Assembly: GCF_002197845.1 (NCBI RefSeq)
Contig: NZ_NIDE01000007.1
Coordinates: 186,001 to 250,000 of the forward strand
Direction of reading: 5' to 3'
Length of the DNA stretch: 64,000 nt
Origin: Fimbriiglobus ruber
GTDB lineage: Bacteria; Planctomycetota; Planctomycetia; Gemmatales; Gemmataceae
This document shows positions 29,224 through 64,000 of this stretch, piece by piece. Every line of letters begins with the position of its first letter. The first letter of the stretch is position 1. Below the pieces are notes generated by a model, which saw nothing but the letters and a program-made list of their open reading frames with translations, was not told the origin of the DNA and did no database searches. Both the position numbers and the translations under genes were made by a program.

Positions 29224-29239
29224 CGAACGGATATGTTCG
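29224..29239. promoter_or_regulatory. Candidate operator dyad in the divergent promoter
   Basis: CGAAC-N6-GTTCG, within the 160-bp gap between the HTH gene and the membrane-protein gene. This is where a repressor controlling both directions would bind. Short arms, so only suggestive. Confidence 0.35.
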
Positions 29240-29278
29240 CTATAGCTGTACAGAATCGCTGGCACCTTCGGAGCATTT

Positions 29279-30046: not shown

Positions 30047-30074
30047 TGTTTTTTCCCTTCCTCAAGAGGCTACC

Positions 30075-31271: not shown

Positions 31272-33580
31272 CAGGCGGTCTGAAGCGGGCGGTCGAACAA
31301 CTCCGAGATGTCGAGGCGGCTGCCAGCGGCCTCTTCATGGTCGAGAGCATCAAAGAGCCAAGCAAGCCAGGGGAATGGCTCACGGTGGTCATCGATCTGT
31401 CCTGCGCCGAGCTATCGCGGGTCGGAGGCGGATTGCCGCTCCATAGCCGCGAGCAAATCGTTATCCTCATTCCCTCGAACTTTCCATTCGACGCGCCGAG
31501 CACGTTCGTCATGCACGACCGTTTCGCAGGGTTTCCGCATGTCCAATGGAAACGCTCGCTCTGCCTGTATCAAGCGCCGACAACCGAATGGAACCCGAGC
31601 GACGGCATGTTCGGATTTCTCGACCGCCTGTATTACTGGCTTCAACAAGGGGCGTTGGGGCAACTCGATCCAATCGGTGCGCCGCTGCATCCGCCCGTGG
31701 CGTACCTTGCGGACGGCCCGGTGCGAACGGTCATCCCGCGCGTGGATACTCCTCCAATTGCTGATGTGCCGTGGTTCGGTACCGCTCATTTGCGCGTCGT
31801 GTCCGATGTCAGAGTGGACCTAGTGGGTTGGTCGCCTTTCTTAGACTCGACCACACCGCCGTCGGTCGCGGCAGTAGTCCTCTTACCCGAACCGTTCCCC
31901 TACGAATTCCCAAGCAGTGTTGGCGATTTGATTGAAGCTCTCGCGAATCGCGGGGTGTCGCGGGAACGGCTGTTTCTCACGTTACAATGGGCGGTTATTC
32001 ACAACGACAAGAATGCGCCCCTCTACGTTGTGCTCGGTACACCCATGCGTGGTACTCGCGGTGGCGATCTTCGCCAGCACCTTACGTCCTGGTACATCGA
32101 TCCTGTCTTCGCTTGGGGACTAAAGGTGGCGTTCGACAAGCACGATGAGGACGAACAGACCCGAGCATACGGTGAGAAAATCGAGAAAATTCTGTTGGAC
32201 TGGGCCAGCGTTGCAAAAGTGGCATGGTGCGCCACCCGGGAGGATCGTCCGGAAATCGTGACGCGCCGTGATCGGGGGTCGCCGCTCGCGTGGTTCTCGG
32301 GCCGCACGGTAGCGATTTGGGGATGCGGTGCTCTCGGTGGGCACGTTGCCGAACACCTCACGCGTGCCGGAGCAAAAAAACTGATCTTGCGGGATAACGG
32401 GGTCGTCACTCCCGGCATTCTCGTGCGTCAGCCGTTCGATGATGCCGACATCGGCAGGGCCAAAGCCTTCGCTTTGCGTGATCGCCTCCATCGTATTCGC
32501 CCTGATCTTGAAGTCGAAGTCCACATTGGTTGCATCTTGGATGAACCGCTTGGAAGTACGGACTCGGTTTCGGGGGCGGATCTCGTCATCGACGCGACGG
32601 CATCGACGCCCGTCATGCATTTCCTTGAACTGTGCCGGTGGAAAGTCTCCGGTTCAGTGGCTCCGGTAGTTTCGATGGCGATTGCGCATAATGCTGATCG
32701 CGGCATGGTCACGCTCGCTCACTCGACACACACGGGCGGCACGCTCGACGTTTGCAGACGATTGAAGTTGGAATCGTGTGAGCGAGCGGATCTCGCCGGA
32801 TTTTTCGACGAGTTCTGGCCCGTGGTGCCGCGACCGTTTTTCCAACCCGAACCAGGGTGCTCGGATGCTACCTTCAATGGCTCGTCGGCGGACGTTGGCG
32901 GATTGGCGGCTTTGATGCTGAATCGCGCAGCGGCCGACCTGTCCTCTTCATTCGATCATCGGACAGCAACCGCGCACTTTGTTGCGCAACCGCACACTCT
33001 CGCGAACGGGGAATGTTCGTCGGCCAGTTTTGCATGGAAAGCGGATCACCTCAGTCTTGACATTCACGCTGGTTACCAAATCCGAATTTCGCCGCCAGCG
33101 TGGGCCAACATGCGGTCGTGGATTGTAAAGAGCAAGGATACGGTCGGACCGAAAGCCGAGACCGGTGGCTTGCTCTTCGGCGAACGAGACGACGCCACCA
33201 GCGTGATCTGGGTCTCCGAAGTCAGCGGTCCTCCGGCCGATAGCACGGCATCGGCCGAGGAATTCGTTTGCGGGATAGATGGGACTGCAGAGTTGAACAA
33301 AGAGAAGCGGGAACGCACACGCGGTTCAGTGCAATATCTTGGCATGTGGCACACGCACCCGGATTCCTATCCACTGCCGAGTCCGATCGACTGGCATGGT
33401 ATGCAGCGGTTGGTCGCGGAGGCCGGTGGGGCGAGCCGGTCGTTGATGTTGATCATTGGCTGTCCGCACGGCATGCCGATGCTCGGAACCTATGTGTTTC
33501 GGGCTCAGGATTTCCATGCTTCGCATGGATCGATCATCATCCGCCCCTGTGTCATTCATGCTGCTTCTTGGAACGAGTAG
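31262..33580 (+). CDS. E2-E1-JAB triple-fusion protein (ubiquitin-like conjugation)
   Basis: A 772-residue protein joining three activities. An N-terminal E2/UBC-like domain (about 1-150) has the catalytic-type SLCLYQAPTTEWNP (Cys101). A ThiF/E1-like adenylation domain (about 345-600) has the nucleotide-binding VAIWGCGALGGHVAEHL. A C-terminal JAB/Mpn deubiquitinase-like domain (about 610-770) has ETGGLLFGE and the zinc motif H697-x-H699-x7-S707-x2-D710 (WHTHPDSYPLPSPIDW). By family it would activate, transfer and remove a protein tag, as the Cap2/Cap3 pair does in type II CBASS. No ubiquitin-like gene is next to it. The start may be the second ATG at 31268, which gives an ATGA overlap with the preceding gene. 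Confidence 0.9.
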   Translation: MAMTGGLKRAVEQLRDVEAAASGLFMVESIKEPSKPGEWLTVVIDLSCAELSRVGGGLPLHSREQIVILIPSNFPFDAPSTFVMHDRFAGFPHVQWKRSLCLYQAPTTEWNPSDGMFGFLDRLYYWLQQGALGQLDPIGAPLHPPVAYLADGPVRTVIPRVDTPPIADVPWFGTAHLRVVSDVRVDLVGWSPFLDSTTPPSVAAVVLLPEPFPYEFPSSVGDLIEALANRGVSRERLFLTLQWAVIHNDKNAPLYVVLGTPMRGTRGGDLRQHLTSWYIDPVFAWGLKVAFDKHDEDEQTRAYGEKIEKILLDWASVAKVAWCATREDRPEIVTRRDRGSPLAWFSGRTVAIWGCGALGGHVAEHLTRAGAKKLILRDNGVVTPGILVRQPFDDADIGRAKAFALRDRLHRIRPDLEVEVHIGCILDEPLGSTDSVSGADLVIDATASTPVMHFLELCRWKVSGSVAPVVSMAIAHNADRGMVTLAHSTHTGGTLDVCRRLKLESCERADLAGFFDEFWPVVPRPFFQPEPGCSDATFNGSSADVGGLAALMLNRAAADLSSSFDHRTATAHFVAQPHTLANGECSSASFAWKADHLSLDIHAGYQIRISPPAWANMRSWIVKSKDTVGPKAETGGLLFGERDDATSVIWVSEVSGPPADSTASAEEFVCGIDGTAELNKEKRERTRGSVQYLGMWHTHPDSYPLPSPIDWHGMQRLVAEAGGASRSLMLIIGCPHGMPMLGTYVFRAQDFHASHGSIIIRPCVIHAASWNE

Positions 33581-37845: not shown

Positions 37846-38193
37846 TCAGTTCAGGTAGCCGTTGGACCGCAGCCACGGCTCCAAGGCTTCTTCCAGAATG
37901 TCCTGGAGGGTGTTCGGAAATACGCCGTCGAGTTGCCGCTGAAGCGACGCCCGCTTCAGCGCGGCCGAGAAGTCGGTGCGGATGCGGGTCGTCAGCGGGG
38001 CGCGGCCGATCGCGTTTCCCGACGACCCCTTCCCGTCCCTCGTCTCCGGGGCCGCGGCGTGGGGTGCCGACGACGGGGCCGCCTTATTGCCGGCGAACAC
38101 GAAATCCTTCTCGACCGCGCGGTCCACGCCGCCGGAGTTCAATCCCGCCACCAGTGACCGCCGATCCTTCATACTCCCCTCCTCCTTGCTCAT
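37846..38193 (-). CDS. Small partition/centromere-binding-like partner of ParA
   Basis: A 115-residue protein, its start overlapping the parA stop by four bases (ATGA). A disordered N-terminus (MSKEEGSMKDRRSLVAGLNS) is followed by a basic helical C-terminal half (RIRTDFSAALKRASLQRQLDG, then TLQDILEEALEPWLRSNGYLN) that looks like a small DNA-binding dimer. The gene order parA-small protein-rep is typical of type Ib plasmid partition cassettes. No sequence family could be confirmed. Confidence 0.65.
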   Translation of the reverse strand: MSKEEGSMKDRRSLVAGLNSGGVDRAVEKDFVFAGNKAAPSSAPHAAAPETRDGKGSSGNAIGRAPLTTRIRTDFSAALKRASLQRQLDGVFPNTLQDILEEALEPWLRSNGYLN

Positions 38194-38867
38194 GATCCCA
38201 GCACCTTTTTCGGTGGTCGATTCGTCGATTTGATCGCCCGGGCCGCGGGTAGTAATTCCCGGAACAACGCCTCGACCTCGTCGGTCGCGTCACGCCCGCG
38301 GGCCCCCAGCTGCCAGACGACGGCCCCCTGGCCGGGGGCGTCGGCGTAAATCTGCCTCAACGTCAGGGCCGTCCGGGCCATCGGCAGTTCGAGCGCCGCC
38401 GCGGCGTCCTTCATGTCCTGGGTCAGACGGTAGGTCTTCCCGACCATGCTGAGGACGATCATCGCGCCGGGTTGCCCGCCCCGGATGTCCTGGGCTTGCC
38501 GCAACACGTTCGTGGCCTGGGCCAGCGCGCGGACTTCGAGCATGCTGGCCTTGCACGGTACGATCGCGAGGTCGGCCCGCAGGAGTAGCGCCCGGCTCGT
38601 CTCGGTGTTACTGCCCGGCCCGTCGGCCACGACGTAGTCGGACTGCTGACCGAGGGCTGGCAGCCGGTCGAGGATGTCGTCCGGGTCGGTGAGGCGGACC
38701 GATTTGACGCCGGGCACGGCCTCGGTCGCCCAATCGGACGACGAATGCTGGGTGTCGCAGTCGGCGAGTGTGACCGTATGCCCCTGCTCGTGGAGCCAGG
38801 CGGCCAGGTGAACGGCGAGGGTCGATTTACCCACCCCCCCTTTGGAATTCGCGACGACGATAATCAT
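38190..38867 (-). CDS. parA: ParA-family partition ATPase
   Basis: A 225-residue Walker-type ATPase that starts MIIVVANSKGGVGKST, with the deviant Walker A KGGVGKST (residues 9-16). TLADCDTQHSSSDW and YVVADGPGSNT are the switch motifs. It has no N-terminal HTH, as in small type Ib ParA proteins that segregate plasmids. Followed by a small partner gene and rep. About 600 bases of repeat-rich non-coding DNA lie upstream and may hold the centromere. Confidence 0.92.
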   Translation of the reverse strand: MIIVVANSKGGVGKSTLAVHLAAWLHEQGHTVTLADCDTQHSSSDWATEAVPGVKSVRLTDPDDILDRLPALGQQSDYVVADGPGSNTETSRALLLRADLAIVPCKASMLEVRALAQATNVLRQAQDIRGGQPGAMIVLSMVGKTYRLTQDMKDAAAALELPMARTALTLRQIYADAPGQGAVVWQLGARGRDATDEVEALFRELLPAARAIKSTNRPPKKVLGS

Positions 38868-45705: not shown

Positions 45706-48408
45706 ATGCTCCGCATCACCCAGCAGCAATCCCCCGAGGCCGCCAAGCGGTACCACGCCACCGCCGACTACTACCGCGAGGGCCAGGAAGTCGTCGGGAA
45801 TTGGGGCGGGGACGCGGCCCGGATGCTGGGCCTCCGGGGGCTGGTCGACCAGGACGCGTTCGACCGGCTGTGCGACAACTTGCACCCGCGGACCGGCCGG
45901 CCGCTGACCGCCCGCACCCGGTCGGACCGCACCGTCGGGTACGACTTCACCTTCTCGGTGCCCAAGTCGGTGTCGCTGCTCTACGCCCTGACCGACGACT
46001 CGGCGGTCGCCGCCGCCTTCCGGGCGGCGGTCGGCGAGACCATGCGGGAGATCGAGGCCGAGATGAAGGCCCGCGTCCGCAAGGGCGGCCGGGACGTCGA
46101 CCGGGACACCGGCAACATGGTCTGGGCCGAGTTCGTCCACCGGACGTCCCGCCCGGTGGACGATGTCCCCGACCCGCAGCTTCACGCCCATTGTTTCGCG
46201 TTCAACGCCACCTGGGACGCGCACGAGCGGCAGTGGAAGGCCGGACAGTTCCGGGATCTCAAGCGGGACGCCCCGTACTTCCAGGCCGCCTTCCGGGTGC
46301 GGTTGGCGAACAAACTCCAGGATCTCGGGTTCGGGATCGTCCGCACGCGGGACGATTTCGAGATCGCCGGCGTTCCGGCCGGCGTTTTGAAGCGGTATTC
46401 GCGGCGGACCGAGCAGGTCGAGCGGGTGGCGGCCGAGCGGGGGATCACCGACCCGGACCGCAAGGCCGAACTCGGGGCCAAGACGCGGGAGCGGAAGGGC
46501 ACTCCGCTCGCGTGGGACGCCCTCCGCGAAACCTGGGCGGCCCGGCTCTCGCCGGCCGAGCGCGACGGTCTGGGCCGAGTCGGCAACCGCGAGACGTCGC
46601 CCCCGCGGCCCGCCCGGGGCGAACGGGCGGCGGTGGACTACGCCCTCGATCACTGCTTCGCCCGGGAGGCCGTGGTTCCCGAGCGGAAACTGCTGACCGA
46701 GGCGCTGAAGCGCGGGCTCGGCGCGGTCACGGTCCGAGACGCGGCCCGCGAACTGTACACCCGCCCCCTGATCCGCGGCGACCACGGCGGGCGGGCGGTG
46801 GCCACCACCCCGGCCATGCTCGACGCCGAGAGCCGCCTGATCGCCTTCGCCCGCGGGGGACGGGGGCGGTTCCGCCCGCTGGCGGACGCGGACCGCCCGC
46901 TCGTCCGGGACTGGCTGAACGCCGGCCAGAAGGCGGCCGTCCGCCACGTCCTCGGGTCGCGGGACCGGGTGACGATCGTCCGCGGGGCGGCCGGCACGGG
47001 CAAGACCAAACTCGAAGAGGAACTACGGGACGCCTTCCGCGAGAGGGGTGTACCGGTGGTCGCCCTGGCCCAATCGGCGGACGCCAGCCGGGGTGTCCTC
47101 CGCGACGAGGCGGGCTTCGCCGACGCCGACACGGTGGCCCGGTTCCTCGTGAACACCGGCATGCAGGATCGGGCGCGGAACGGCGTCGTCCTGGTGGATG
47201 AGGCCAGCCAGCTCGGCACCCGCGACCTGTTGCGGGTGTTCGACGTGGCGGACACGATCGGGGCGCGAATCGTACTCGTCGGCGACCGCCGCCAGCACCG
47301 GGCCGTGGCGGCCGGCGAACCGCTGGCCCTGCTGGAGGAGAAGGCCGGGTTGCCCGTCGCCGAGGTGACGGACATTATCCGCCAGTCTGGAGATTACAAA
47401 AAAGCGACGAAGGCACTGAGCCGGGGCGACATCGCGACGGGATTCGCCGAACTCGATCGGCTGAAATGGATCAAAGAGGTGCCCGACTGCGACCGCGACC
47501 GGGTGCTGGCGGCCGCCTACCTGGCGGCGGTCGCGGAGCGGAAGGCGAACGGCGAACGCAAAACCGCCCTGGTGGTCAGCCCGACGCACGCCGAGGCGGG
47601 CCGCGTCACCCGCGCGGTTCGCGACGGCCTCAAGGCCGCCGGCCGACTCGGCGCGGAACGGGTGATCGCGACCTGGCGGCCCGCGCACCTGACCGACGCC
47701 CAGAAGGCCGACCCGACGCAATACGAAGCCGGCGACCTGCTCCGGTTCCACCAACACGCGCCCGGTCACAAGAGTGGCTCCCGGCTGATCCTCGGGGCGG
47801 GCGCGACCCCGCCGGTCGGGTCCGCCGACCGGTTCGAGGTCTACCGGCCGGCCCCACTCGCGGTTGCGGTCGGGGACCGGTTGCGGGTGACGGCCGGGGG
47901 CACGACGCGGGACGGCAAGCACCGGCTCGACACCGGGGCGGTGTTCACCGTGAAGGGGTTCACCCGGCGGGGGGACGTCGTCGACGACCGCGGGTGGGTG
48001 ATCGACCGGGAGTTCGGGCACCTGGCGCACGGGTACGTGGTCACCTCGCACGCCAGCCAGGGCCGGACGGTCGACAAGGTGTTCGTCGCCCAGTCGGGCG
48101 AGTCCTTCGCGGCCTCGAACCGGCGGCAGTTCTACGTGTCGGTGTCGCGGGGCCGCGAGCAGGCCGTCGTCTTCACCGACGACAAGGCCCAATTGCTCGC
48201 CGCCGCGGCGCGGGCGGACGACCCGCTTTCGGCGACCGCCCTGGCCGAGTCTCGCCGCCGGCCGCCTTCGCTCCGCCAGCGCCTGTACAAGCATCTTGCG
48301 TTCGTCCGCCGAATGGGTACGTTCGCACGGACGCACGAAATCCCTTCGACACATTTCCACCGCGAGATGACACAGCAGCACCACCAGGAGAGGGGCCATG
48401 AGCGGTAA
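45706..48408 (+). CDS. MobF-family conjugative relaxase with RecD-like helicase
   Basis: A 900-residue TrwC/TraI-type protein. The relaxase domain (1-300) has the tyrosines Tyr22-Tyr23 (HATADYYREG), FTFSVPKSVSLLYAL, and the metal-binding histidines His145, His160 and His162 (DPQLHAHCFAFN). The helicase part has Walker A VRGAAGTGKTKL, Walker B VVLVDEASQLG, RIVLVGDRRQH and the C-terminal VTSHASQGRTVDKVFV with YVSVSRGRE. It nicks oriT and unwinds the strand for transfer. The C-terminal tail is short. No coupling protein or secretion genes are visible. Confidence 0.95.
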   Translation: MLRITQQQSPEAAKRYHATADYYREGQEVVGNWGGDAARMLGLRGLVDQDAFDRLCDNLHPRTGRPLTARTRSDRTVGYDFTFSVPKSVSLLYALTDDSAVAAAFRAAVGETMREIEAEMKARVRKGGRDVDRDTGNMVWAEFVHRTSRPVDDVPDPQLHAHCFAFNATWDAHERQWKAGQFRDLKRDAPYFQAAFRVRLANKLQDLGFGIVRTRDDFEIAGVPAGVLKRYSRRTEQVERVAAERGITDPDRKAELGAKTRERKGTPLAWDALRETWAARLSPAERDGLGRVGNRETSPPRPARGERAAVDYALDHCFAREAVVPERKLLTEALKRGLGAVTVRDAARELYTRPLIRGDHGGRAVATTPAMLDAESRLIAFARGGRGRFRPLADADRPLVRDWLNAGQKAAVRHVLGSRDRVTIVRGAAGTGKTKLEEELRDAFRERGVPVVALAQSADASRGVLRDEAGFADADTVARFLVNTGMQDRARNGVVLVDEASQLGTRDLLRVFDVADTIGARIVLVGDRRQHRAVAAGEPLALLEEKAGLPVAEVTDIIRQSGDYKKATKALSRGDIATGFAELDRLKWIKEVPDCDRDRVLAAAYLAAVAERKANGERKTALVVSPTHAEAGRVTRAVRDGLKAAGRLGAERVIATWRPAHLTDAQKADPTQYEAGDLLRFHQHAPGHKSGSRLILGAGATPPVGSADRFEVYRPAPLAVAVGDRLRVTAGGTTRDGKHRLDTGAVFTVKGFTRRGDVVDDRGWVIDREFGHLAHGYVVTSHASQGRTVDKVFVAQSGESFAASNRRQFYVSVSRGREQAVVFTDDKAQLLAAAARADDPLSATALAESRRRPPSLRQRLYKHLAFVRRMGTFARTHEIPSTHFHREMTQQHHQERGHER

Positions 48409-49513: not shown

Positions 49514-50362
49514 TCAATCGTCGTATTCGTCCTCTTCATCGTCTATGGCTTCGTCGGTGAAGAGAACAGTCAGTGTCTTGCCATAGCTGCCGAGTCCGAT
49601 CACATCTTCGTTCATCTCAATCTGCGGTGCGCCGTCGAACCACTCGTCGAGCCAGGAGCTTCCTTCGTCCTGTTTAGCCTCGTTTATGTTTGCAGAGTTC
49701 AAATTGAACTTTGCCGTTGCGGACTTGGGAGCAATGACGTCACCCTTCTTTAGCCATTGAAGACCGCTAACATCCTTCAGTTTTTCGGACAAGAAGCAAT
49801 ATTCAACGCGGCTGCCGCTGGTGACGATGACGGCCACCGGATCGTCGGTGTACTTCGCAAGCCGGATTGCTGTCGCGGTGATTGATGTCTTGCAAAGTAA
49901 GGCGAGGGACTGAATGGCACCAAAGCCTTGGCCAGCGCTGTCTACCGCTTTGGAAAAGAGTTTCCCCGGCATTAACAGGGCTGAGGCGAACTGGTCCGCC
50001 TGTCGTTCGTGACGGTTGTGAGAAATGAAACCGCTATGCGACCGATGAACGCCGTCCCCATTGGGGAACAGTGATTGGGCATGGCCAGGCAAGAAGTAGT
50101 GCCCCAATTCATGCGCCACGGTAAACCTGATGAATCCTTCATTGTCGATATGGCGCGCGTACTGGATGCCGAAGACATTACCGACGCGCACAAGGAACCC
50201 GGACACACCAGGTTCGGAAGAATCCTTCGGTTGGACGACGATGTCGGAATTCCGGGCGATGGTAAAAGGGCAAATCGGCAAGGCTGTAAAACCCTGTTGC
50301 TTGATGACGTTTTCGGCTTCGCTTTCCGCTTCAAACAAGGCGATTGAATCGCTCATGGGCAT
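49514..50362 (-). CDS. ImmA/IrrE-family metallopeptidase, second copy (CapP-like)
   Basis: A 282-residue protein with the zinc motif HELGH (84-88) and RQADQFASALLMP downstream. The C-terminal half is beta-rich with an acidic tail. It starts at an ATG overlapping the HTH gene stop as TGATG, exactly as in the first pair. The pair is divergent from the ubiquitin-like operon starting at 50842. Likely substrate by family: the HTH repressor. An upstream GTG (50365) is a less likely start. Confidence 0.87.
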   Translation of the reverse strand: MPMSDSIALFEAESEAENVIKQQGFTALPICPFTIARNSDIVVQPKDSSEPGVSGFLVRVGNVFGIQYARHIDNEGFIRFTVAHELGHYFLPGHAQSLFPNGDGVHRSHSGFISHNRHERQADQFASALLMPGKLFSKAVDSAGQGFGAIQSLALLCKTSITATAIRLAKYTDDPVAVIVTSGSRVEYCFLSEKLKDVSGLQWLKKGDVIAPKSATAKFNLNSANINEAKQDEGSSWLDEWFDGAPQIEMNEDVIGLGSYGKTLTVLFTDEAIDDEEDEYDD

Positions 50363-50703
50363 CACGATCCTTCCTGTCGATCTTTGTTTTTCTGGGCAAG
50401 CATTTTCGCAATCTTTGCCAGACTCTCCTGGTCGTCGGCTGACATTTGCTCGAAGTTCCGGAACAACTGTTGGGCAACGGGCCCGGCACTCTTCGGCTCG
50501 GTTTCTCTGCCAAGCAGGAAGTCGATGGTGACAGACAACGCGTCGGCCAGCTTCTTGAGATTATCAAATGAGGGAGACCGTCTGCCGGACTCGAAATGCG
50601 AAATGGCAGACGGCTGGAAGCCAGCTTTCTGGGCAAGTTCCGATTGGCTCAATCCCTTGTTTTCCCTGGTCTTTCGCAACAGTTCTGGGAATTCTTCCGG
50701 CAT
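50362..50703 (-). CDS. XRE/Cro-family HTH repressor, second copy (CapH-like)
   Basis: A 113-residue protein starting MPEEFPELLRKTRENKGLSQ, with the helix-turn-helix SELAQKAGFQPSAISHFESG. The C-terminal part is acidic and probably protease-sensitive. Its start faces the ubiquitin-like operon 138 bases away. A TGACGG-based palindrome at 50796-50816 is a candidate operator. The frame further upstream (to 50802) has no HTH homology. Confidence 0.88.
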   Translation of the reverse strand: MPEEFPELLRKTRENKGLSQSELAQKAGFQPSAISHFESGRRSPSFDNLKKLADALSVTIDFLLGRETEPKSAGPVAQQLFRNFEQMSADDQESLAKIAKMLAQKNKDRQEGS

Positions 50704-50841: not shown

Positions 50842-51186
50842 ATGGATCGAAATGAAGACGAACGCGGCGGGGCCATCCCCACCGAAGAGGGCGCATTACT
50901 CGAAGAGGTCGAGATCGAGGAGTACGCGAAGAAGAATCACCGGCCGCCCAGGGCGAAGCGGTACGTCATCCGGATCGACAAGGTGAAGTTCACCGTCCAT
51001 GTTTCGCACATGACGGGCCGCGAGCTTCTCAAACTGGCGGGCAAGACGCCGCCGGAGAACTACTCGATTTCTCAGAAGCTGCACGGCGGTCATGTCAAGC
51101 CCATCGGGCTGGATCAGGACGTGGACTTCACCTGCCAGGGCGTCGAGCGGTTCATGACCCTGCCACTTGACCAAACGGAGGGCTGA
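50842..51186 (+). CDS. Ubiquitin-like protein, multiubiquitin family (single unit)
   Basis: A 114-residue protein. An acidic N-terminal tail (about 1-38) is followed by one beta-grasp domain: RYVIRIDKVKFTVHV, MTGRELLKLAGKTPPENYSI and VDFTCQGVERFMTLP, the pattern of the multiubiquitin family. Many members have two or more units, but here there is one. It ends DQTEG, with a single terminal glycine rather than a GG pair. An AAGGAG ribosome site precedes the start. It is the first gene of a four-gene operon with an E2, a JAB-E1 fusion and a DUF6527-like protein, and would be the tag that is conjugated. Confidence 0.86.
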   Translation: MDRNEDERGGAIPTEEGALLEEVEIEEYAKKNHRPPRAKRYVIRIDKVKFTVHVSHMTGRELLKLAGKTPPENYSISQKLHGGHVKPIGLDQDVDFTCQGVERFMTLPLDQTEG

Positions 51187-51189
51187 AAC

Positions 51190-51594
51190 GTGCGTCGAGA
51201 CTTTCGATTGCCAGAGGAAGACGAGCAGTATCTCGAAAGCCTCGGCCTGGACTGGGAAACCGTCAAGGTGGGAGAAACGCGCTGGCTGGTTGTCCACGAC
51301 TGGCCAGTGCCTCCGGGCTACAACCACGCCACGGCGATGGCGGGTCTCATTCTCCCGGCCTCCTACCCGGACGGCCCGATTGATATGGTGTATTTCCATC
51401 CGCACCTGTCGCTTAATAGCGGCAAGAACATCAAGAATCTGACCTCTCACCAGTTCGATGGCAAGGATTGGCAACAATGGTCGCGGCATCGAACCGGCGC
51501 CAATCCCTGGCGGGCGGGCGTGGACAATGTCTCAACGCAGTTCCTTCTCGTGGATTACTGGCTGGTGCGCGAGATGCCGGGAGTCGCTGCATGA
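51190..51594 (+). CDS. E2/UBC-like protein (prokaryotic E2 family E type), no cysteine
   Basis: A 134-residue protein with family E features: LESLGLDWETVKVGETRWLV, VPPGYNHATAMAGLILPASY, IDMVYFHPHLSL, HQFDGKDWQQWSRHR and VDNVSTQFLLVDYWL. It sits 3 bases after the UBL gene and overlaps the JAB-E1 gene by 4 (ATGA). No cysteine occurs anywhere in the protein, so it cannot form a classical E2 thioester; it may be a scaffold, or transfer may use another mechanism. Confidence 0.85.
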   Translation: MRRDFRLPEEDEQYLESLGLDWETVKVGETRWLVVHDWPVPPGYNHATAMAGLILPASYPDGPIDMVYFHPHLSLNSGKNIKNLTSHQFDGKDWQQWSRHRTGANPWRAGVDNVSTQFLLVDYWLVREMPGVAA

Positions 51595-52976
51595 TGACCA
51601 AACTACGTTTGTCGGGGGTGCATCATCACGCCCTTCGGGACCACCTTCTTCCCGCCGACGGCCTGGAAGCAGTGGCGATTGCCTTCTGCGGACGCCGCCA
51701 AGGCGGCGACCATCATGTCTTGACCGTACATGACCTGGTGATGATTCCCCACGATGCTTGCACGGAGCGAACGCCGATTCGGGTTTCGTGGCCCACTTCG
51801 ATGCTTATTCCGCACCTGGAAAGGGCGATTCGTCGCGGCCACGCCGTTCTGAAAATCCACAGCCATCGCGGAGACTTCCGGTTCTTCTCCGAAGTCGATG
51901 ACGTTTCGGACCGAAATCTGTTCCACTCGGTTTACGGCTGGTTCGACGGCAATGCTCCGCACGCCAGCGCCGTCATGCTACCCGACGGCGAAATCTTCGG
52001 CCGGGTGGTCACGGACGCGGGCCGGTTTGCCCCCCTTCATTCAGTCGCAGTTGCCGGTCACGATTTCCATTTCTGGCCGGGTGGCAATTCCGCCGGACCA
52101 TTGCCAATATTCACGCAGCGTCATGCACAGATTTTCGGTCAAGGGACCACGGCACGTCTGCGGATGTCAACCGCTGCCGTGATCGGCTGCTCCGGTACCG
52201 GAAGCCCGCTGATCGAACAACTGGTTCGCCTTGGAATAGGCAGGCTGCTCTTGGTCGATCCTGATGTTGTGGAAGAAAAGAACCTCAACCGGATACTGCA
52301 CTCGACGATGGAGGATGCCAAGGCCCGGCGACCAAAGGTCGAAGTCATGGCCCGCGAAATCAACCGTATTGGCCTCGGGACGGAGGTAATACCTCTCCAA
52401 AAAAACCTCGTCGATTCTGAGACGGTGCGGCGGGTCGCGCAATGCGACGTGGTGTTCGGCTGCATGGATGGTGCCGAAGGCCGCAACTTACTGAACCGCT
52501 TGGCAACGTTTTATTGCCTGCCGTATTTCGATGTAGGCGTTCGTCTGGAGGCGGACGGGCAAGGTGGGGTCTCGCAAGTATGCGGCGGCGTTCATTACTT
52601 GCAGCCCGGCGGCTCCAGTCTCTTGAGCCGCGGGGTTATTTCCTCGGAAGACATTGAGGCGGAGGCTCTGCGTCGGTCCGACCCGGTGGAATACGAACGG
52701 CGGTTCAAGGTGGGCTATATCCGTGGCGTTCGCGAAGATCGCCCCGCGGTGGTTAGCGTCAACATGCATTTCGCCAGCATGGCGGTAAACGAGTTTCTTG
52801 CCAGGCTTCACCCATTTCGCGACGATCCAAATGAAGATTATGCGTGGGTTTCGACGAGCCTGACACAGATGCATAACTACGCCAAGCCGGACGGCGTTGC
52901 CTGCGCCCGTCTTGCAAGGCACGTCGGCCGCGGGGACACCAATCCGTTGCTAGACATGCCAATCCTCGGCCAGTAA
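51591..52976 (+). CDS. JAB-E1 fusion protein (ubiquitin-like activating enzyme with protease domain)
   Basis: A 461-residue protein. The N-terminal JAB/JAMM metalloprotease-like domain has Glu26 and the zinc set His90, His92, Ser100 and Asp103 (KIHSHRGDFRFFSEVDD). The ThiF/E1 adenylation domain starts near 190 with VIGCSGTGSPLIEQL, LLLVDPDVVEEKNLNR (Asp223, Arg234) and VVFGCMDGAEGRN. By family the E1 part adenylates the C-terminus of the ubiquitin-like protein and the JAB part processes or removes it. Translationally coupled to the E2-like gene. A second ATG at 51594 is equally possible. Confidence 0.9.
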   Translation: MMTKLRLSGVHHHALRDHLLPADGLEAVAIAFCGRRQGGDHHVLTVHDLVMIPHDACTERTPIRVSWPTSMLIPHLERAIRRGHAVLKIHSHRGDFRFFSEVDDVSDRNLFHSVYGWFDGNAPHASAVMLPDGEIFGRVVTDAGRFAPLHSVAVAGHDFHFWPGGNSAGPLPIFTQRHAQIFGQGTTARLRMSTAAVIGCSGTGSPLIEQLVRLGIGRLLLVDPDVVEEKNLNRILHSTMEDAKARRPKVEVMAREINRIGLGTEVIPLQKNLVDSETVRRVAQCDVVFGCMDGAEGRNLLNRLATFYCLPYFDVGVRLEADGQGGVSQVCGGVHYLQPGGSSLLSRGVISSEDIEAEALRRSDPVEYERRFKVGYIRGVREDRPAVVSVNMHFASMAVNEFLARLHPFRDDPNEDYAWVSTSLTQMHNYAKPDGVACARLARHVGRGDTNPLLDMPILGQ

Positions 52977-52988
52977 GGTCGCATTCTT

Positions 52989-53330
52989 ATGGAATCAATG
53001 TCGAGATTCTGGCGGCGTCTCCGAGGGTGGTGGGCTTCTCTTTGGGATCGTCCCTATCGGTCGGTTATGGTCGAGGAGATTCCGGATCGTCCGGAAACGA
53101 AAACGCTCTACGTCGCCGGAGAAAACGGTCATCTCTGGTTCGTGGCAATGATTTGCCCGTGCGGCTGCGGCGAACTCCTTCACATGAGTTTGCTTCAGGA
53201 TGCACGGCCACACTGGACCGTGAACGTTGACTCAAAGGGCGTCCCGTCCATTTCACCTTCAGTATGGCGGCAAGTCGGTTGCCGAAGTCACTTCTTCCTG
53301 ACTCGTGGACGAATTCAGTGGTGCAATTGA
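52989..53330 (+). CDS. DUF6527-like protein of the UBL operon
   Basis: A 113-residue protein. It carries CPCGCGELLHMSLL (a Cys cluster) and a C-terminal VGCRSHFFLTRGRIQWC, the signature of DUF6527, which is a regular partner of multiubiquitin/E2/JAB/E1 genes. The conserved Cys and His residues suggest a bound metal and possibly a hydrolase role. It follows the JAB-E1 gene after 12 bases and closes the operon. Confidence 0.82.
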   Translation: MESMSRFWRRLRGWWASLWDRPYRSVMVEEIPDRPETKTLYVAGENGHLWFVAMICPCGCGELLHMSLLQDARPHWTVNVDSKGVPSISPSVWRQVGCRSHFFLTRGRIQWCN

Positions 53331-54527: not shown

Positions 54528-54836
54528 ATGACCACACGACAACGACACGAGATCGCCCGCCAGATGGGGCGGCGGGTCCGCACCGGGCGGGTGTGCAAGG
54601 GCCTGACGCCGGACGGCCTGGCCGAGCGGGCCGGGCTCACCCGCCGGTACCTGGGGCGGATCGAAGCGGGGGTCGAACAGCCGACGGCCGACGACCTGGT
54701 GGCCATCGCCCGCGCCCTGGAACTCCCGCTGTGGTTCGTCTTCGACGTGCCGGCCGCGCGCGGGGGAGCGGGTCGAAAACCCGCGGTCCACTCCGGGCAA
54801 CGGACCTTACTCGGTTCGCCCGACGACGCGGGCTAA
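54528..54836 (+). CDS. XRE-family HTH protein
   Basis: A 102-residue protein starting MTTRQRHEIARQMGRRVRTG, with HTH LAERAGLTRRYLGRIEAGVE. The C-terminus is short and basic. Preceded by an AAAGGAC-type ribosome site. It overlaps the convergent toxin gene by 30 bases at the 3' ends. Target unknown. Confidence 0.75.
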   Translation: MTTRQRHEIARQMGRRVRTGRVCKGLTPDGLAERAGLTRRYLGRIEAGVEQPTADDLVAIARALELPLWFVFDVPAARGGAGRKPAVHSGQRTLLGSPDDAG

Positions 54837-55247
54837 CCGTGCCTCGATCGCGTCGCCGAATCGGCCGGTGATGTCCTTGAACAAGGCCCGCGGGAGCAGC
54901 CCGTACGCCGCACTCTCCGGACCGCCGCCCGGCTCCGCCATCCGCAGGTCCGGCCCCGGCCACACGAAGCGATTGGCCTCGGTCAACATCACCCAGGATC
55001 GCTCCACGTCCAGGCCCAGACGCTGCTTCGTCGCGTGGGGGATTTCCACGGCCGGGGCGTCGCCGGACGGCGGGGTATGAGTGATCGGTAGCACCGTCAC
55101 GACGCGGCGGCCCTGGTCGTCGGCGACCGCCAGGATCACGGCACAGGGGCGATCCTTCACCCCTTCCTCCCGGCCGCGTTCGTGTTCCCGCCACCACAGG
55201 TACGAATAGCGAACGACCAGACCGGGGGCCGGCTCGGGGAACGCCAC
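54807..55247 (-). CDS. PemK/MazF-like toxin
   Basis: A 146-residue protein with GTG start. GLVVRYSYLWWREHERGREE, then RPCAVILAVADDQGRRVVTVLPITHTPP and VMLTEANRFVWPGPDLR match the PemK-like growth-inhibitor fold, which cleaves mRNA. It is directly downstream of a Phd/YefM antitoxin gene (2-base gap), the usual antitoxin-first order. It would stabilise the element by post-segregational killing. Confidence 0.72.
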   Translation of the reverse strand: MAFPEPAPGLVVRYSYLWWREHERGREEGVKDRPCAVILAVADDQGRRVVTVLPITHTPPSGDAPAVEIPHATKQRLGLDVERSWVMLTEANRFVWPGPDLRMAEPGGGPESAAYGLLPRALFKDITGRFGDAIEARLARVVGRTE

Positions 55248-55249
55248 GC

Positions 55250-55507
55250 TCAGCCGGCGACTTCAGGATCGAACGCGGCGGCGGCCGCCGGCGGTTCCGC
55301 GGTCCGGATGGCGTCCAGGTCGGCGGCCGTGAAATCGGTCACCCGCAAGACTTCGCGGTCCCGCCGCTTGAGCCGCTGGAACTCCTCGGCCGACAGCAAC
55401 ACGAGCCGCTCCCGCCCGTTGCGCGTCACCACGACCGGCCCGACCAACGCCCGGTCCTGATAGTGCCCAATCTTCCGCTGGAACTCGCCCGCCGATACCA
55501 TCTCCAT
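55250..55507 (-). CDS. Phd/YefM-family antitoxin
   Basis: An 85-residue protein: MVSAGEFQRKIGHYQDRALV, GPVVVTRNGRERLVLLSAEEFQRLKRRD, the Phd fold that binds DNA as a dimer, then an acidic C-terminal tail that would neutralise the toxin. The start ATG at 55507 has GGAGG nine bases upstream; an ATG at 55522 is also in frame. An ACACAT/ATGTGT dyad lies just upstream as a candidate autoregulatory operator. Confidence 0.85.
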   Translation of the reverse strand: MEMVSAGEFQRKIGHYQDRALVGPVVVTRNGRERLVLLSAEEFQRLKRRDREVLRVTDFTAADLDAIRTAEPPAAAAAFDPEVAG

Positions 55508-55525
55508 ACTCTTAACCTCCATATA

Positions 55526-55549
55526 ACACATTAAACACGTATTATGTGT
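55526..55549. promoter_or_regulatory. Candidate antitoxin operator
   Basis: ACACAT (55526-55531) and ATGTGT (55544-55549) form a dyad in a locally AT-rich stretch upstream of the Phd-like gene, where antitoxins of this family usually bind to repress their own operon. Confidence 0.4.
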
Positions 55550-55660
55550 ACTATACACGATATGCATATTTTCCGTCAACCCAATATTCGGCCGGACTTC
55601 CATGCACCGCGGTTCCGTCACGCAATCATTAAACATACTGGTTTACAGGACATAGAAAGT

Positions 55661-55776: not shown

Positions 55777-56415
55777 ATGCTGATGGGGTACATGCGGGTG
55801 AGCAAGGCGGACGGGAGCCAGGTGACGGACCTCCAGCGCGACGCCCTGCTGGCGGCGGGCGTCGATCTTCGACACTTATATGAAGACGCCGCGTCCGGCC
55901 GGCGGGACGACCGGCCCGGCCTCGCGGGTTGCCTCAAGGCGCTCCGGGTCGGGGACACGCTGGTCGTCTGGAAGCTCGACCGCCTGGGGCGGGATCTTCG
56001 CCATCTGGTCAACACGGTTCACGATTTGACGATTCGCGGCATCGGCTTCCGGGTCCTAACCGGGCACGGCGTCAGCATCGACACCACTTCCCCGAGTGGC
56101 AAGCTGATCTTCGGGATCTTCGCCGCGCTCGCCGAGTTCGAGCGGGAACTGATCGTCGAGCGGACCCGGGCGGGACTGGCCGCCGCCCGGGCGAGGGGCC
56201 GGGCGGGCGGGCGGCCGTACAAGATGACGACCGCCAAGCTCCGGCTCGCGATGGCGGCGATGGGCCACCCGGAAACCAGGGTCGGCGACCTGTGTACGGA
56301 ACTCGGGATTACCCGCCAGACGCTCTACCGGCACGTCGGCCCGGGCGGGGCCTTGCGAGAAGACGGGAAGCGGTTGCTGAACCGGCGGAACACGCCCGGC
56401 GTCGTGCCCGCATAG
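55777..56415 (+). CDS. Serine resolvase/invertase
   Basis: A 212-residue small serine recombinase. MGYMRVSKADGSQVTDLQRD gives the nucleophile Ser at residue 9, DRLGRDLRHLVNTVHDLTIRG is the conserved Arg region, FAALAEFERELIVERTRAG forms the long E helix, and a C-terminal HTH (VGDLCTELGITRQTLYRHV) binds DNA. TnpR/Hin-type enzymes resolve cointegrates or plasmid multimers. The position by the toxin-antitoxin pair fits plasmid maintenance. Confidence 0.93.
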   Translation: MLMGYMRVSKADGSQVTDLQRDALLAAGVDLRHLYEDAASGRRDDRPGLAGCLKALRVGDTLVVWKLDRLGRDLRHLVNTVHDLTIRGIGFRVLTGHGVSIDTTSPSGKLIFGIFAALAEFERELIVERTRAGLAAARARGRAGGRPYKMTTAKLRLAMAAMGHPETRVGDLCTELGITRQTLYRHVGPGGALREDGKRLLNRRNTPGVVPA

Positions 56416-60422: not shown

Positions 60423-63400
60423 TCAGCCCAACCCGTACAGCTCGAACGCCGCGACCGTATTCAGGCCGACGGCCGGACGGCCGGCCCGCGTGTCGGCGAG
60501 CCACTGGTGCCGCGCCGCCGCGACCGCCCCGGCCCGCGGGCGGGCCTCGCACGGGTCACGGGCCGCCGCACCCGGACGAGAATCGGTGCCCGCGTACGCC
60601 GCGGGTCGCGCCGCGGTCGCTCCCCGAACGACCTCGTCCCGGAGCCGCAAGTAGTGTCCCGCGACGTCGTTGGCGAACGCGGGGGCGTCCAGCGAATGGA
60701 GCGGCCACAGGCCGGCCAGCACCGACCGCGCCCGGTGGGTGGCGAGTTCCACGCAGAAGCCTTCCACGTCCTGTAGCCCCGACTGCCGCACCCGCCCGAC
60801 GGAGCAACTGACCTGGATCAATAACTCGATCCCGCGTAAGTCGCACGCGCGACTCGCCCGCCACGTGTCGCCGTCCTTCCGCAGCAGCGACGACCCGTTC
60901 CAAACGCCGTCGCCGAGTTCGATCCCCGACAGACCCCCGTGCCCGTGCCCGCAGACCGACACGACCCGGAACGCCCGGTGGGCCCGGAGCCCCCGGGCCA
61001 GGCAGGCGTGCGTTCCCGGCGGGTGGTCCGCGGAACTGTACCACGTGCGCCCGGACCCGGGCGGGGCCAACCGCTGGTGGCCCCGGTGCAACAGGACCGC
61101 GCCGTTCCGCGGGCCGTCGTCCCCCCGCGCGAACCAGGACAGCGATAAAATGTTGTCGGGCTCGTCCCGGGTGTCGTGCCACTCGCCGCGGTCGACGTCC
61201 TCCAGCCACTCGACCAGGGACAGCGACAACACCGCGTGCATCGACCGCACCCGCTCGAACAGGAATCGGTCGTCGTGGCGGAGGAAGGCGACGGGGACGC
61301 CGTGGAGTGCGTCGTCCACCTGGACCACCACGTCGTGGTCCGGCACCCGGTCCAGGGCGGCCGCCACTTCGGCTAGCGGCCAGGCCGCGGCCACCGCCGC
61401 CAGGAACTCCGCGGTCGCCGCGTCCAGATAGGCCGTCAAGGCGGGCGGGTCCAGGCCCGCGGCTTTCCGGTCGTCCCAGAATTGCCGCCAGTGCGCGACG
61501 TCGATCGCGGGCGGCGACTCGCCCGCGGCGGGCCACAGGTGCGGGAACTGTCGCCGCAACAGATCCCGGCACGTGGTCAGTCCGTACTCCTTGAGCAGCC
61601 GCTCCAGCCGCCACAGGGCGCGCGAACCCGGCAACTCCCCCCACTCCGCCCGACTGATGTGTTCGGTCAAGCCGGCGACGTGATTCATGACGTGCCCCCA
61701 CGTCTCGGGCTCCCCGAGCCGGAAGCGCTCCCACCCGTCGCGGATCGCCTCGTCGTGCCGACGCGCGGCGGCGGCGACGCGGGCGCGGGCGCCGGGCGCG
61801 GTGTGGCCGCCCGCGACGACCCGGAGGCGGTCGCCGGCCCGTCCGAACAGGGCCCACGCCAGTTGCCCGGACGACGTGAAGCCGACCCGAAATAATACGC
61901 GGCGGTCGCCCAGAACCGCGGCCAGCCGGGCTTCGCCGATCCCCGGTCGCAAGGAGGCCGCCAACGCGTCCGGCCCCCTCGTCGTGGGCGGTGGGAGCGG
62001 GCGACCGCCTCGTTCGGGCGTGCCGCCCGGGGGTTCGGAACGCCGTCCGAAACTGGCCGGGCCGGCCGCGGCGTGCGCCGCCCGGGCGGCCGACAGCGTT
62101 TCCCCACAGGCCCACCCCGGGACCGGTCCGGCCGCCCCGTCGGTGCCGGGAGACGGGTTCGCACACAGAAAGCGCTCCAACAGCATCCGGTGACCGAGTT
62201 CGGCGTCCCAGCACAGGAATTGGCGGCGGAGCTCGTCGGCCCGCCGCGGGACCGCCTCGCGTGTCGTCAGGGTGTGCCCGAGGGTCACGATCTTACGCCG
62301 GACGGCCGCGCTGTATTCCGCCAACAACAGCCGGTCGTACGCGGCCAGGTTGAGGCGGGTGGTCCGGTCGCGGAGGTGGTCGACGACGCGACCGCACACG
62401 AGGTGCGCGCGGCCCGGGTCGCGGTCCTCCAAATGGTTCAGGACGTGAACGGCCAGCCGCAGGACCGAGAGCGTCGCGGGGCCGGGCGCGAGCCCCAGCC
62501 AGTCGTCGTCGCGGTCGAGGGTGTCGAGCAGCCGGTGATACTGGTCGCGGAGATCGGCCCCCCGCAGGGCGTCGAGGAGCGTGCACGCCACGTCGACTGT
62601 TTCCGGGTAGCAGGCCCCGACGAACGACCCCGGGAAGAGTTTCTCCCGGACGCGCCGCAACCAGCCGGGCGCGGCGTGGTCCCGCATCGAATCCGGGTCC
62701 GTCAGGGCTTCCAGGAGTACGACTGCGCGGGCGGCCTGGCCCGTCTTAATGTAGGACGATGCCAATGTGGCCGGTAACGACGCCCGCCCGTACGGCCCGG
62801 TCGACGCCAGCCGCTGCCGCATGACGGCGGGGGAATGCCACGCCGCGGCATCGATCCCGAGGTATTCCTCGATCAGAACGGCGGCCCGCCCGGGCCGCCC
62901 GTCGACCGCCAGCACGGCCCCGAGTCGCATCACCAACCCGTCGAGGTTCTCGTCCGGCGCCGCGGCGCGGCGGGCCCGGAGCTTCGGCCCGAGGACCCCC
63001 GCCCGCCGGCCGTAATCGCCCGGCGTGATGTTCAGGTGACGTTCGAGTAGCTGCCGGCATTCGTCGAAGCGGCCGCCGAAGAAAAGGATTTGCGAAATCA
63101 CCACCCAGATCTGCTCGCCGACGAGGGGCGGCGACTCGCCGATCTCCGAGTAGAACTCCTGGTACCGCGCGACCGGATCCCGCGCGACGTGTGGGAAGAC
63201 CGCGTCCAGGAGACACGCGGCCTCGGCCATCCGGTCCGTCGCGTGAAGTCCCACCACCCACATCATCAAGAGCCCGACGGCCAACCGGCGGTCCGCGGTC
63301 ACGTGTGGCCGACCCGTCAGGAACCGGTGCCGGACGTCCGGCGGGTGGTAATAGTCGCCGCCGGACACGGCGAACCGGGCTTCCAACAGTCCCACCAACT

Positions 63401-64000
63401 GGTCGAACAAGTTGCAGTCCGCCAGGGCGAAGGCGATGACGAAAACGAGGACGTCGGCGAACGCGGGGGCGACGTGCGCGAGCCAGGCCGGCGACCCGCG
63501 TGGGGCCGCGTCCCCGCCGCCCCCGACACCGCCGCAGGTGTCGTAAAGGTCGACGACGTCCCGCGTGCGGGTCGTCGGCCACCCGGCCATGACGACGAAC
63601 AGCAGTGCGGCCGCGTCCGCCTCGGGGGGCCGCCAGCGGGGGGGAATCCGGGGCCCGCGGTCCGCCCCGACCCGGGCGCCCGGCGCGGGGGCGGCCAGGG
63701 CCGCGCGAAACGTCTGAAAGGTCTCGGCTTGTCGGCTCGCCCGTCCCACCAGGGCGGCCCAACTGACGAGCCTGTCGCGGGCCGCGACGAAGCTCGAACC
63801 CGCGATCCGCCGCCCTAGGGTACCCAGGGAGGAGAGGTCGTCCGGCCAGATCCCCAGGTACGCCCCGAAAACCACGACCCCCCGGTCCGTGTGACCCAGG
63901 CGGTGCCAACACCACGCGAGCCCGCGAATCAGGTCCGCGACCCAGTGGCCGATTCCGTGCTTTCCGGTCAAAATGAGGGCGGAAACCTCGGGCGGACTGC
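60423..64000 (-). CDS. CHAT-domain protein with helical repeats, 5' end cut by window
   Basis: The frame is open to base 64000, so the natural start is outside or is the TTG at 63971 (1,182 residues from there). The first 900 residues are mostly helical, TPR-like. The C-terminal CHAT caspase-like domain has CGHGHGG (His1009-His1011 counted from 63971) and LLIQVSCSVG (Cys1056), the catalytic dyad pattern, and ends in LADTRAGRPAVGLNTVAAFE. CHAT proteins are cysteine proteases or signalling scaffolds. Upstream member of the cluster with a sigma-like gene, which suggests sensing-to-transcription control. Confidence 0.8.
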   Translation of the reverse strand, partial: SPPEVSALILTGKHGIGHWVADLIRGLAWCWHRLGHTDRGVVVFGAYLGIWPDDLSSLGTLGRRIAGSSFVAARDRLVSWAALVGRASRQAETFQTFRAALAAPAPGARVGADRGPRIPPRWRPPEADAAALLFVVMAGWPTTRTRDVVDLYDTCGGVGGGGDAAPRGSPAWLAHVAPAFADVLVFVIAFALADCNLFDQLVGLLEARFAVSGGDYYHPPDVRHRFLTGRPHVTADRRLAVGLLMMWVVGLHATDRMAEAACLLDAVFPHVARDPVARYQEFYSEIGESPPLVGEQIWVVISQILFFGGRFDECRQLLERHLNITPGDYGRRAGVLGPKLRARRAAAPDENLDGLVMRLGAVLAVDGRPGRAAVLIEEYLGIDAAAWHSPAVMRQRLASTGPYGRASLPATLASSYIKTGQAARAVVLLEALTDPDSMRDHAAPGWLRRVREKLFPGSFVGACYPETVDVACTLLDALRGADLRDQYHRLLDTLDRDDDWLGLAPGPATLSVLRLAVHVLNHLEDRDPGRAHLVCGRVVDHLRDRTTRLNLAAYDRLLLAEYSAAVRRKIVTLGHTLTTREAVPRRADELRRQFLCWDAELGHRMLLERFLCANPSPGTDGAAGPVPGWACGETLSAARAAHAAAGPASFGRRSEPPGGTPERGGRPLPPPTTRGPDALAASLRPGIGEARLAAVLGDRRVLFRVGFTSSGQLAWALFGRAGDRLRVVAGGHTAPGARARVAAAARRHDEAIRDGWERFRLGEPETWGHVMNHVAGLTEHISRAEWGELPGSRALWRLERLLKEYGLTTCRDLLRRQFPHLWPAAGESPPAIDVAHWRQFWDDRKAAGLDPPALTAYLDAATAEFLAAVAAAWPLAEVAAALDRVPDHDVVVQVDDALHGVPVAFLRHDDRFLFERVRSMHAVLSLSLVEWLEDVDRGEWHDTRDEPDNILSLSWFARGDDGPRNGAVLLHRGHQRLAPPGSGRTWYSSADHPPGTHACLARGLRAHRAFRVVSVCGHGHGGLSGIELGDGVWNGSSLLRKDGDTWRASRACDLRGIELLIQVSCSVGRVRQSGLQDVEGFCVELATHRARSVLAGLWPLHSLDAPAFANDVAGHYLRLRDEVVRGATAARPAAYAGTDSRPGAAARDPCEARPRAGAVAAARHQWLADTRAGRPAVGLNTVAAFELYGLG

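What the first reader, a model, noticed from the sequence alone, without database searches (positions are those of the whole stretch)
50842..53330. Complete single-UBL operon: UBL, E2-like, JAB-E1 fusion, DUF6527
Seen: four tightly packed genes, in order tag, E2-like, protease-activase fusion, Cys-rich DUF6527-like. Known: multiubiquitin, E2 family E, JAB, E1 and DUF6527 families co-occur in bacterial ubiquitin-like operons predicted from comparative genomics. Here JAB and E1 are in one protein and only one ubiquitin-like unit is present, a compact form.
Basis: partly seen in the sequence, partly recalled or inferred. Interest (0 to 1): 0.75.

Follow-up and report, generated by a model that had tools for sequence, protein, structure and literature searches.

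The report
Bacterial ubiquitin-like (Bub) tagging operon
This is an intact bacterial protein-tagging operon of a kind described in 2006 and given solved structures in 2025 (the Bub system), carried with a DNA-damage switch in a planctomycete defence island; it is a good new example, not a new kind of system.

Summary
Confirmed: 50842-53330 holds four tight, intact genes: a single ubiquitin-like unit ending in Gly, an E2-family-E protein with no cysteine, a JAB-E1 fusion, and a DUF6527 protein. Reinterpreted: this is a Bub (bacterial ubiquitination-like) operon, the "type 6e" operon of Iyer 2006 (PMC1779556), which already listed the JAB-E1 fusion, the metal-binding fourth gene and a solo-Ubl case. 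Citrobacter BubCD (PDB 9ea4, E 1e-84, full length) and BubB (9eae; model TM 0.89) are close relatives. The "compact form" is ordinary: 48 of 49 relatives have one Ubl, and 18 of 39 complete non-redundant operons are more compact still, with Ubl and E2 in one protein. Planctomycete relatives keep the order (5 of 5). The locus lies in a relaxase-bearing island with 6A-MBL (a second E2-E1-JAB system with its own CapH/CapP) and Septu. New leads: BubE carries a Trp/Arg-rich helix that looks membrane-binding, and many phages carry lone DUF6527 genes. Anti-phage activity of Bub is unproven. New member of a known kind; interest low to moderate.

The parts
49514..50365 (-). CapP: ImmA/IrrE (M78) metalloprotease, HELGH motif; predicted ssDNA-activated protease of CapH
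   Evidence: PADLOC capP E 1.3e-58; Pfam Peptidase_M78 E 2.6e-9
50362..50703 (-). CapH: HTH repressor (listed ORF to 50802; the likely start is the ATG at 50703)
   Evidence: PADLOC capH E 2.8e-26, HTH_3 E 4e-18; start choice by alignment with L002
50704..50841 (.). Divergent capH-bubA intergenic region; five TGACG/CGTCA half-sites at 50719, 50742, 50788, 50797 and 50811: putative CapH operators and bubA promoter
   Evidence: the only stretch of 63,862 sliding 138-bp windows with 5 or more half-sites; half-site core TGAC kept at all five places, and the block TCCGTCACATTGTA kept exactly, in the Fuerstiella relative L002
50842..51186 (+). bubA: one ubiquitin-like (Multi_ubiq) domain, residues about 32-114, with an acidic N-terminal extension; C-terminus ...DQTEG, already mature
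   Evidence: PF14452 E 3.8e-14; one domain; similar to Ubl-BilA 8u38 (E 4e-6) and weakly to a Citrobacter BubA fragment
51190..51594 (+). bubB: E2-like, no cysteine in the whole protein; invariant QxWSRH motif (WSRH at 51478-51489)
   Evidence: PF14462 E 9.4e-35; PDB 9eae_C Citrobacter BubB E 2e-26; model TM 0.89/0.93 to 9eae_C
51591..52976 (+). bubCD: N-terminal JAB/JAMM isopeptidase domain (E26, H90-x-H92-x7-S100-x2-D103; 51858-51899) fused to an E1 adenylation domain (GxxGxG at 52185-52202); Ser342 (52614-52616) lies near where canonical E1s carry the Cys (inferred)
   Evidence: full-length match to PDB 9ea4 Citrobacter BubCD, E 1.2e-84; residue conservation over 56 sequences
52989..53330 (+). 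bubE: DUF6527 protein; putative zinc site C56/C58/C60/C98 and Ser91-His101 pair
   Evidence: PF20137 E 5.8e-24; these residues invariant in the 35 aligned sequences and kept in four lone viral-contig members
52992..53045 (+). bubE N-terminal helix (residues 2-19), Trp/Arg-rich, candidate interfacial membrane helix
   Evidence: helix 2-19 in the model; 39 of 39 relatives net positive, mean 1.95 Trp in 20 residues against 0-0.06 in the neighbouring proteins

Best explanation
A Bub (bacterial ubiquitination-like, type 6e) operon under CapH/CapP control. CapH represses the divergent promoter. When DNA damage or phage infection makes single-stranded DNA, CapP cuts CapH and the operon is expressed. 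BubCD's E1 domain adenylates the C-terminal Gly of BubA and passes it, without an E2 thioester because BubB has no cysteine, through BubB to target proteins. BubCD's JAB domain and the small BubE protein (a probable Ser-His hydrolase with a zinc site) remove or recycle the tag. Because BubA here already ends in ...TEG and both proteases are nonetheless kept, at least one of them probably works on conjugates and not only on Ubl maturation. Shown here: genes, order, motifs, homology to the solved BubCD and BubB, regulator homology, half-site cluster. Inferred: the chemistry (oxyester, from the literature as I remember it), the trigger (from CapH/CapP literature), the role of BubE, the targets and a defence role.
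For: Full-length E 1e-84 match to Citrobacter BubCD and E 2e-26 to BubB, BubB model TM 0.89. Complete and intact catalytic sets: JAMM, E1 ATP site, invariant WSRH of the E2, BubE C56/C58/C60/C98 and S91/H101. BubB has no Cys, and the E1 has a conserved Ser342 near where a catalytic Cys would be expected. CapH/CapP at PADLOC E 3e-26 and 1e-58; 219 of 544 Bub operons carry CapW or CapH+CapP (PMC13373217); in my set CapP is upstream and divergent in 21 of 35 and CapH in 17 of 35. Half-site cluster and footprint. 16 of 21 separate Ubls end exactly in Gly, and complete operons keep JAB and DUF6527 regardless. Purifying selection on all six genes. Located among 6A-MBL and Septu.
Against: No Bub operon has been shown to protect against phage (stated in PMC13373217). 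The key mechanistic papers (Ye 2026 NSMB, Gong 2025 Structure) are not held, so the oxyester mechanism and the BubE Ser-His assignment rest on my memory of their abstracts plus the residue patterns here. This BubB departs from the family at R75 (Leu) and D77 (Ser); two relatives share that, so it is probably a subclade trait. The JAB domain is below Pfam's cut-off (22.8 against 25).
Confidence: 0.88

Rival explanations
1. A Bil (bacterial ISG15-like, type 6d) anti-phage system that tags phage structural proteins through thioester chemistry.
For: The Ubl's best solved match is annotated Ubl-BilA 8u38 (E 4e-6); a Ubl, E1, E2 and JAB are all present.
Against: Type 6d has separate JAB and E1 genes and an E2 with a conserved Cys plus a downstream His (PMC1779556); here JAB and E1 are fused and the E2 has no Cys. 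The E1 and E2 match BubCD and BubB with E 1e-84 and 2e-26.
Confidence: 0.03
2. A general DNA-damage or stress response (protein-fate) module rather than an anti-phage system.
For: Its regulator class responds to DNA damage; PMC13373217 itself leaves this open and says Bub has not been shown to protect against phage.
Against: It sits among 6A-MBL and Septu with a relaxase, ParA and resolvase; Bub genes are frequent on plasmids (141 records) and patchy in the phylum (11 of 294 genomes hold any DUF6527), which is typical of accessory defence cargo.
Confidence: 0.3
3. An addiction or selfish module of the mobile element, maintained by opposing conjugation and deconjugation (the 2006 speculation of Iyer and colleagues).
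For: Mobile context; paired conjugating and deconjugating activities in one operon; speculation in PMC1779556.
Against: No toxic component is recognised; the CapH/CapP switch fits inducible expression better than addiction.
Confidence: 0.07

Closest known systems
Citrobacter Bub system (BubA, BubB, BubCD; PDB 9ea4, 9ea5, 9ea8, 9eae, 9eav; Ye 2026 NSMB, cited through PMC13373217)
   Same: E1-JAB fusion homologous over its full length; Cys-less E2 of family E; multiubiquitin-family Ubl; DUF6527 gene downstream (a C. koseri plasmid shows this order)
   Different: In the C. koseri operon three Ubl units and the E2 form one 363-aa protein; here one Ubl and a separate E2
Type 6e 'polyUbl' operon of Iyer, Burroughs and Aravind 2006 (PMC1779556)
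   Same: Ubl, E2-like, JAB fused to the N-terminus of E1, metal-binding protein (sll6052 of Synechocystis given as the example)
   Different: Most 2006 examples have 2-3 Ubl units; a solo-Ubl case was already listed. The E2 was then called inactive
Synechocystis PCC 6803 pSYSX and Oscillatoria PCC 7112 plasmid operons
   Same: Same four genes in the same order with divergent HTH and ImmA/IrrE genes
   Different: Two Ubl units per BubA
CapH+CapP regulators (named in PMC13373217)
   Same: HTH repressor plus M78 protease next to an immune-type operon
   Different: Nothing of substance seen; the operator here is predicted only
6A-MBL (type 6a) system, present in the same window
   Same: E2, E1 and JAB activities, own CapH/CapP
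   Different: E2_A-ThiF-JAB in one protein plus an MBL-fold enzyme; different E2 family

Membership tests
Bub / type 6e | Ubl of the Multi_ubiq family with C-terminal Gly | tested here: met
   PF14452 E 3.8e-14; ends ...DQTEG, motif shared by most relatives
Bub / type 6e | Tandem Ubl units ('polyUbl'); typical of the 2006 description but not required by it | tested here: not met
   one unit; but 48 of 49 relatives also have one, and the 2006 paper lists a solo-Ubl case, so it is not a defining requirement
Bub / type 6e | E2-like protein of family E homologous to BubB, without catalytic Cys | tested here: met
Bub / type 6e | JAB fused to the N-terminus of an E1 (BubCD), JAMM motif intact | tested here: met
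   full-length match to 9ea4; E26, H90, H92, S100, D103 conserved
Bub / type 6e | Downstream metal-binding DUF6527 protein (BubE) | tested here: met
   PF20137 E 5.8e-24; C56/C58/C60/C98 invariant
Bub / type 6e | Conjugation through oxyester intermediates | not testable with these tools
   absence of Cys in BubB and Ser342 in the E1 are consistent with it; needs biochemistry
Bub / type 6e | Anti-phage protection | not testable with these tools
   not demonstrated for any Bub operon according to PMC13373217
CapH+CapP regulation | Adjacent HTH (CapH) and M78 protease (CapP) | tested here: met
   PADLOC E 2.8e-26 and 1.3e-58
CapH+CapP regulation | ssDNA-activated cleavage of CapH and derepression | not testable with these tools
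   needs biochemistry; known for the class from PMC13373217
Bil (type 6d) | E2 with catalytic Cys; separate JAB and E1 genes | tested here: not met
   no Cys in BubB, JAB and E1 in one ORF
Type II CBASS | CD-NTase gene next to Cap2/Cap3 | tested here: not met
   no CD-NTase family hit among the scanned flanking genes; the E1 has no E2 domain

The most novel reading that the evidence does not exclude
BubE is a membrane-docked Ser-His deconjugase: a Trp/Arg-rich amphipathic helix, at the N-terminus in most members and at the C-terminus in divergent ones (L067, L068, L080), tethers the protease to the membrane. Bub tagging would then be edited at the membrane, and BubE would act on conjugates rather than only maturing the Ubl.
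Probability: 0.35. Interest if true: 0.5.

Novelty: new member of a known kind. Interest (0 to 1): 0.22.

Why it matters
It is a clean, intact, single-Ubl Bub operon with its switch, in a planctomycete lineage where the family is rare (11 of 294 sampled genomes of the phylum hold DUF6527). Since its Ubl is already mature while both proteases are kept, it is a convenient natural variant for asking what BubE and the JAB domain do besides maturation. It also shows two different E2-E1-JAB systems, each with its own CapH/CapP, in one island. None of this changes the picture of bacterial ubiquitin-like systems by itself.

Tried and rejected
Looked for a relative of BubE among solved structures: Foldseek gave nothing below E 1 and VIA-align nothing above Z 3.6 for a confident model (pLDDT 91), so its fold could not be assigned. 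PDB sequence hits to BubE were spurious matches to designed repeat proteins. Considered Bil and CBASS; rejected on architecture. Searched phages and viral contigs for BubCD: none, so Bub was not found phage-borne in these collections. A general palindrome search across the capH-bubA regions of 16 loci gave no shared operator; the half-site claim is limited to this window and its closest relative L002. L047/L056 first looked like an E2-JAB-E1 fusion but are degraded loci with frameshifts and no Ubl. The amphipathicity of the BubE N-terminus is weak against shuffles (median p 0.10); the composition signal (Trp, net charge) is the stronger evidence. Ye 2026, Gong 2025 and the CapH/CapP paper are not held.

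Full report
OBSERVATION. Pfam gives Multi_ubiq for 50842-51186 (E 3.8e-14), Prok-E2_E for 51190-51594 (E 9.4e-35), ThiF for 51591-52976 (E 6.5e-29, with a sub-threshold Prok-JAB at its N-terminus) and DUF6527 for 52989-53330 (E 5.8e-24). Spacing is 3 nt, a 4-nt overlap, and 12 nt. Against a 75%-identical relative in a Fuerstiella MAG (L002) all four genes and the two regulators have dN 0.18-0.31 with dS of about 1 to saturation, so this is a maintained unit. The genome (12.4 Mb) has 75 PSD1 matches, absent from 14 control genomes, which supports a planctomycete, and has a single DUF6527.

WHAT IT IS. By sequence the JAB-E1 protein matches Citrobacter BubCD over its full length (PDB 9ea4, E 1.2e-84) and the E2 matches Citrobacter BubB (9eae, E 2.3e-26); an AlphaFold model of the E2 (pLDDT 94) overlays 9eae_C with TM 0.89/0.93 and nothing else convincingly. 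The system is therefore Bub, bacterial ubiquitination-like. It is the type 6e operon of Iyer, Burroughs and Aravind 2006 (PMC1779556), described there as a polyUbl, an E2-like protein, a protein with JAB fused to E1, and a metal-binding protein with sll6052 of Synechocystis as example; a solo-Ubl case and Ubl-E2 fusions were noted. The Bub name and the count of 544 operons come through PMC13373217, which cites Ye 2026 and Gong 2025; those two are not held. From memory only: Ye 2026 reports oxyester intermediates and a Ser-His serine protease in Bub operons.

SURROUNDINGS. Divergently upstream lie CapH (50362-50703) and CapP (49514-50365), PADLOC E 2.8e-26 and 1.3e-58. The literature says CapP is activated by ssDNA and cleaves CapH, and that 219 of 544 Bub operons have CapW or CapH+CapP. 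Among 35 non-redundant relatives with enough upstream sequence, 21 have a divergent CapP and 17 a CapH by profiles built here. The 138-bp intergenic region holds five TGACG/CGTCA half-sites; no other place in the window reaches five, and the core TGAC of all five, plus the exact block TCCGTCACATTGTA, is kept in L002. The regulator-operon unit has 57% G+C in a 64% window. Nearby are a TrwC relaxase, ParA and a resolvase, Septu PtuA/PtuB, and a 6A-MBL system whose E2-E1-JAB protein and MBL enzyme pass NCBIfam cut-offs, with its own CapH/CapP. This is a defence island with mobile-element genes.

COMPARISON. One genome scan gave 55 relatives; 42 clusters at 90% identity remain and 39 hold all of A, B, CD and E in order. 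Of the three exceptions two are cut by contig ends and one is degraded. In other planctomycetes 5 of 5 close loci have A-B-CD-E with separate A and B (L069-L073). 48 of 49 BubA proteins from the scan have one Ubl. In 18 of 39 complete clusters Ubl and E2 are one protein, mostly with QTEG or a similar motif at the junction. So the single-Ubl, JAB-E1 form is the ordinary form of this clade; multi-Ubl forms occur in more distant enterobacterial, rhizobial and cyanobacterial operons. Bub genes occur on 141 plasmid records and in no phage record searched.

MECHANISM. JAMM residues E26, H90, H92, S100 and D103 and the E1 ATP-site residues are invariant or nearly so. BubB has no cysteine, and the QxWSRH motif is invariant in 52 sequences. 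In the E1, Ser342 lies in P-G-G-S-S-L, near where canonical E1s carry their Cys (inference). This fits non-thioester transfer. BubE keeps C56, C58, C60, C98, P90-S91 and H101 in all 35 aligned sequences, and the cysteines, S91 and H101 in four lone viral-contig members, consistent with a zinc-stabilised Ser-His hydrolase. Of 21 separate Ubls, 16 end exactly in Gly while JAB and DUF6527 are retained; hence at least one protease is likely to act on conjugates. This is an argument from gene content, not a demonstration.

A NEW LEAD ON BubE. The model shows an N-terminal helix (residues 2-19) and a compact beta domain without a match in the PDB. In 39 non-redundant relatives the first 20 residues are always net positive and hold 1.95 Trp on average, against 0-0.06 in BubA, BubB, BubCD and CapP, although the sequence itself is not conserved. 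Three divergent members that lack it have a similar stretch at the C-terminus (FWQRIRKWWS, GLFARLRKWLFG, LKGWWQAWQRRRR); one (L081) has neither clearly. This suggests membrane docking, or a shared partner; formal amphipathicity against shuffles is weak (median p 0.10).

A SECOND LEAD. DUF6527 members without any recognised E1, E2 or Ubl neighbour are common in phages: tblastn with a lone planctomycete member finds 292 records, mostly Salmonella and Klebsiella phages including Det7. These correspond to phrog_3362, to which the window BubE itself matches only weakly (E 0.0013). A counter-defence role is a guess.

VERDICT. Observation confirmed; interpretation partly supported; a new member of a known kind with a useful natural variation. 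Whether Bub defends against phage is open.

Noticed in passing
27701-33580: Second E2-E1-JAB system: 6A-MBL enzyme (30036-31271, NF058524 E 4e-121) and cap2_3 fusion (31262-33580, NF058523 E 2e-119), preceded by its own divergent CapH (28705-29265) and CapP (27701-28759); first gene 29279-30046 gave no PADLOC or NCBIfam hit.
   Followed up: partly
25008-27493: Septu PtuA (E 2e-115) and PtuB (E 3e-75) by PADLOC.
   Followed up: partly
38190-38867, 45706-48408, 55777-56415: ParA-like ATPase, TrwC relaxase-helicase and serine resolvase: the defence genes lie in an island with mobile-element genes.
   Followed up: partly
54807-55636: Phd/YefM antitoxin (55250-55636) followed by a 146-aa ORF (54807-55247) without a Pfam hit: possible toxin-antitoxin pair.
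   Followed up: no
60423-63971: 1182-aa protein with weak TPR and CHAT-protease hits below Pfam cut-offs.
   Followed up: no
L089:3477-3788 (phage Det7 gene 149), L090:3477-3788: Lone DUF6527-type genes in hundreds of phages (292 records, mostly Salmonella and Klebsiella phages) without other Bub genes nearby; possible anti-Bub deconjugases or unrelated hydrolases.
   Followed up: partly
L067, L068: Divergent planctomycete loci with a distant ThiF protein next to a DUF6527 that has a Trp/Arg-rich C-terminal tail, with CapH or CapP nearby: possibly another Bub-like type.
   Followed up: partly
L080, L081: Operons with a 'phosphotransferase' gene between E1 and DUF6527 and a Ubl ending in ATFGGGV or ATFGHGNH instead of TEG.
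   Followed up: no
window BubB residues 75 and 77 (about 51412-51420): R75 and D77, present in 47 of 52 sequences, are Leu and Ser here; L002 and L005 have similar changes.
   Followed up: no
L078:5028-5183: Short stand-alone DUF6527 annotation beside TIR and CBASS-annotated genes on an E. coli plasmid; may be a remnant.
   Followed up: no
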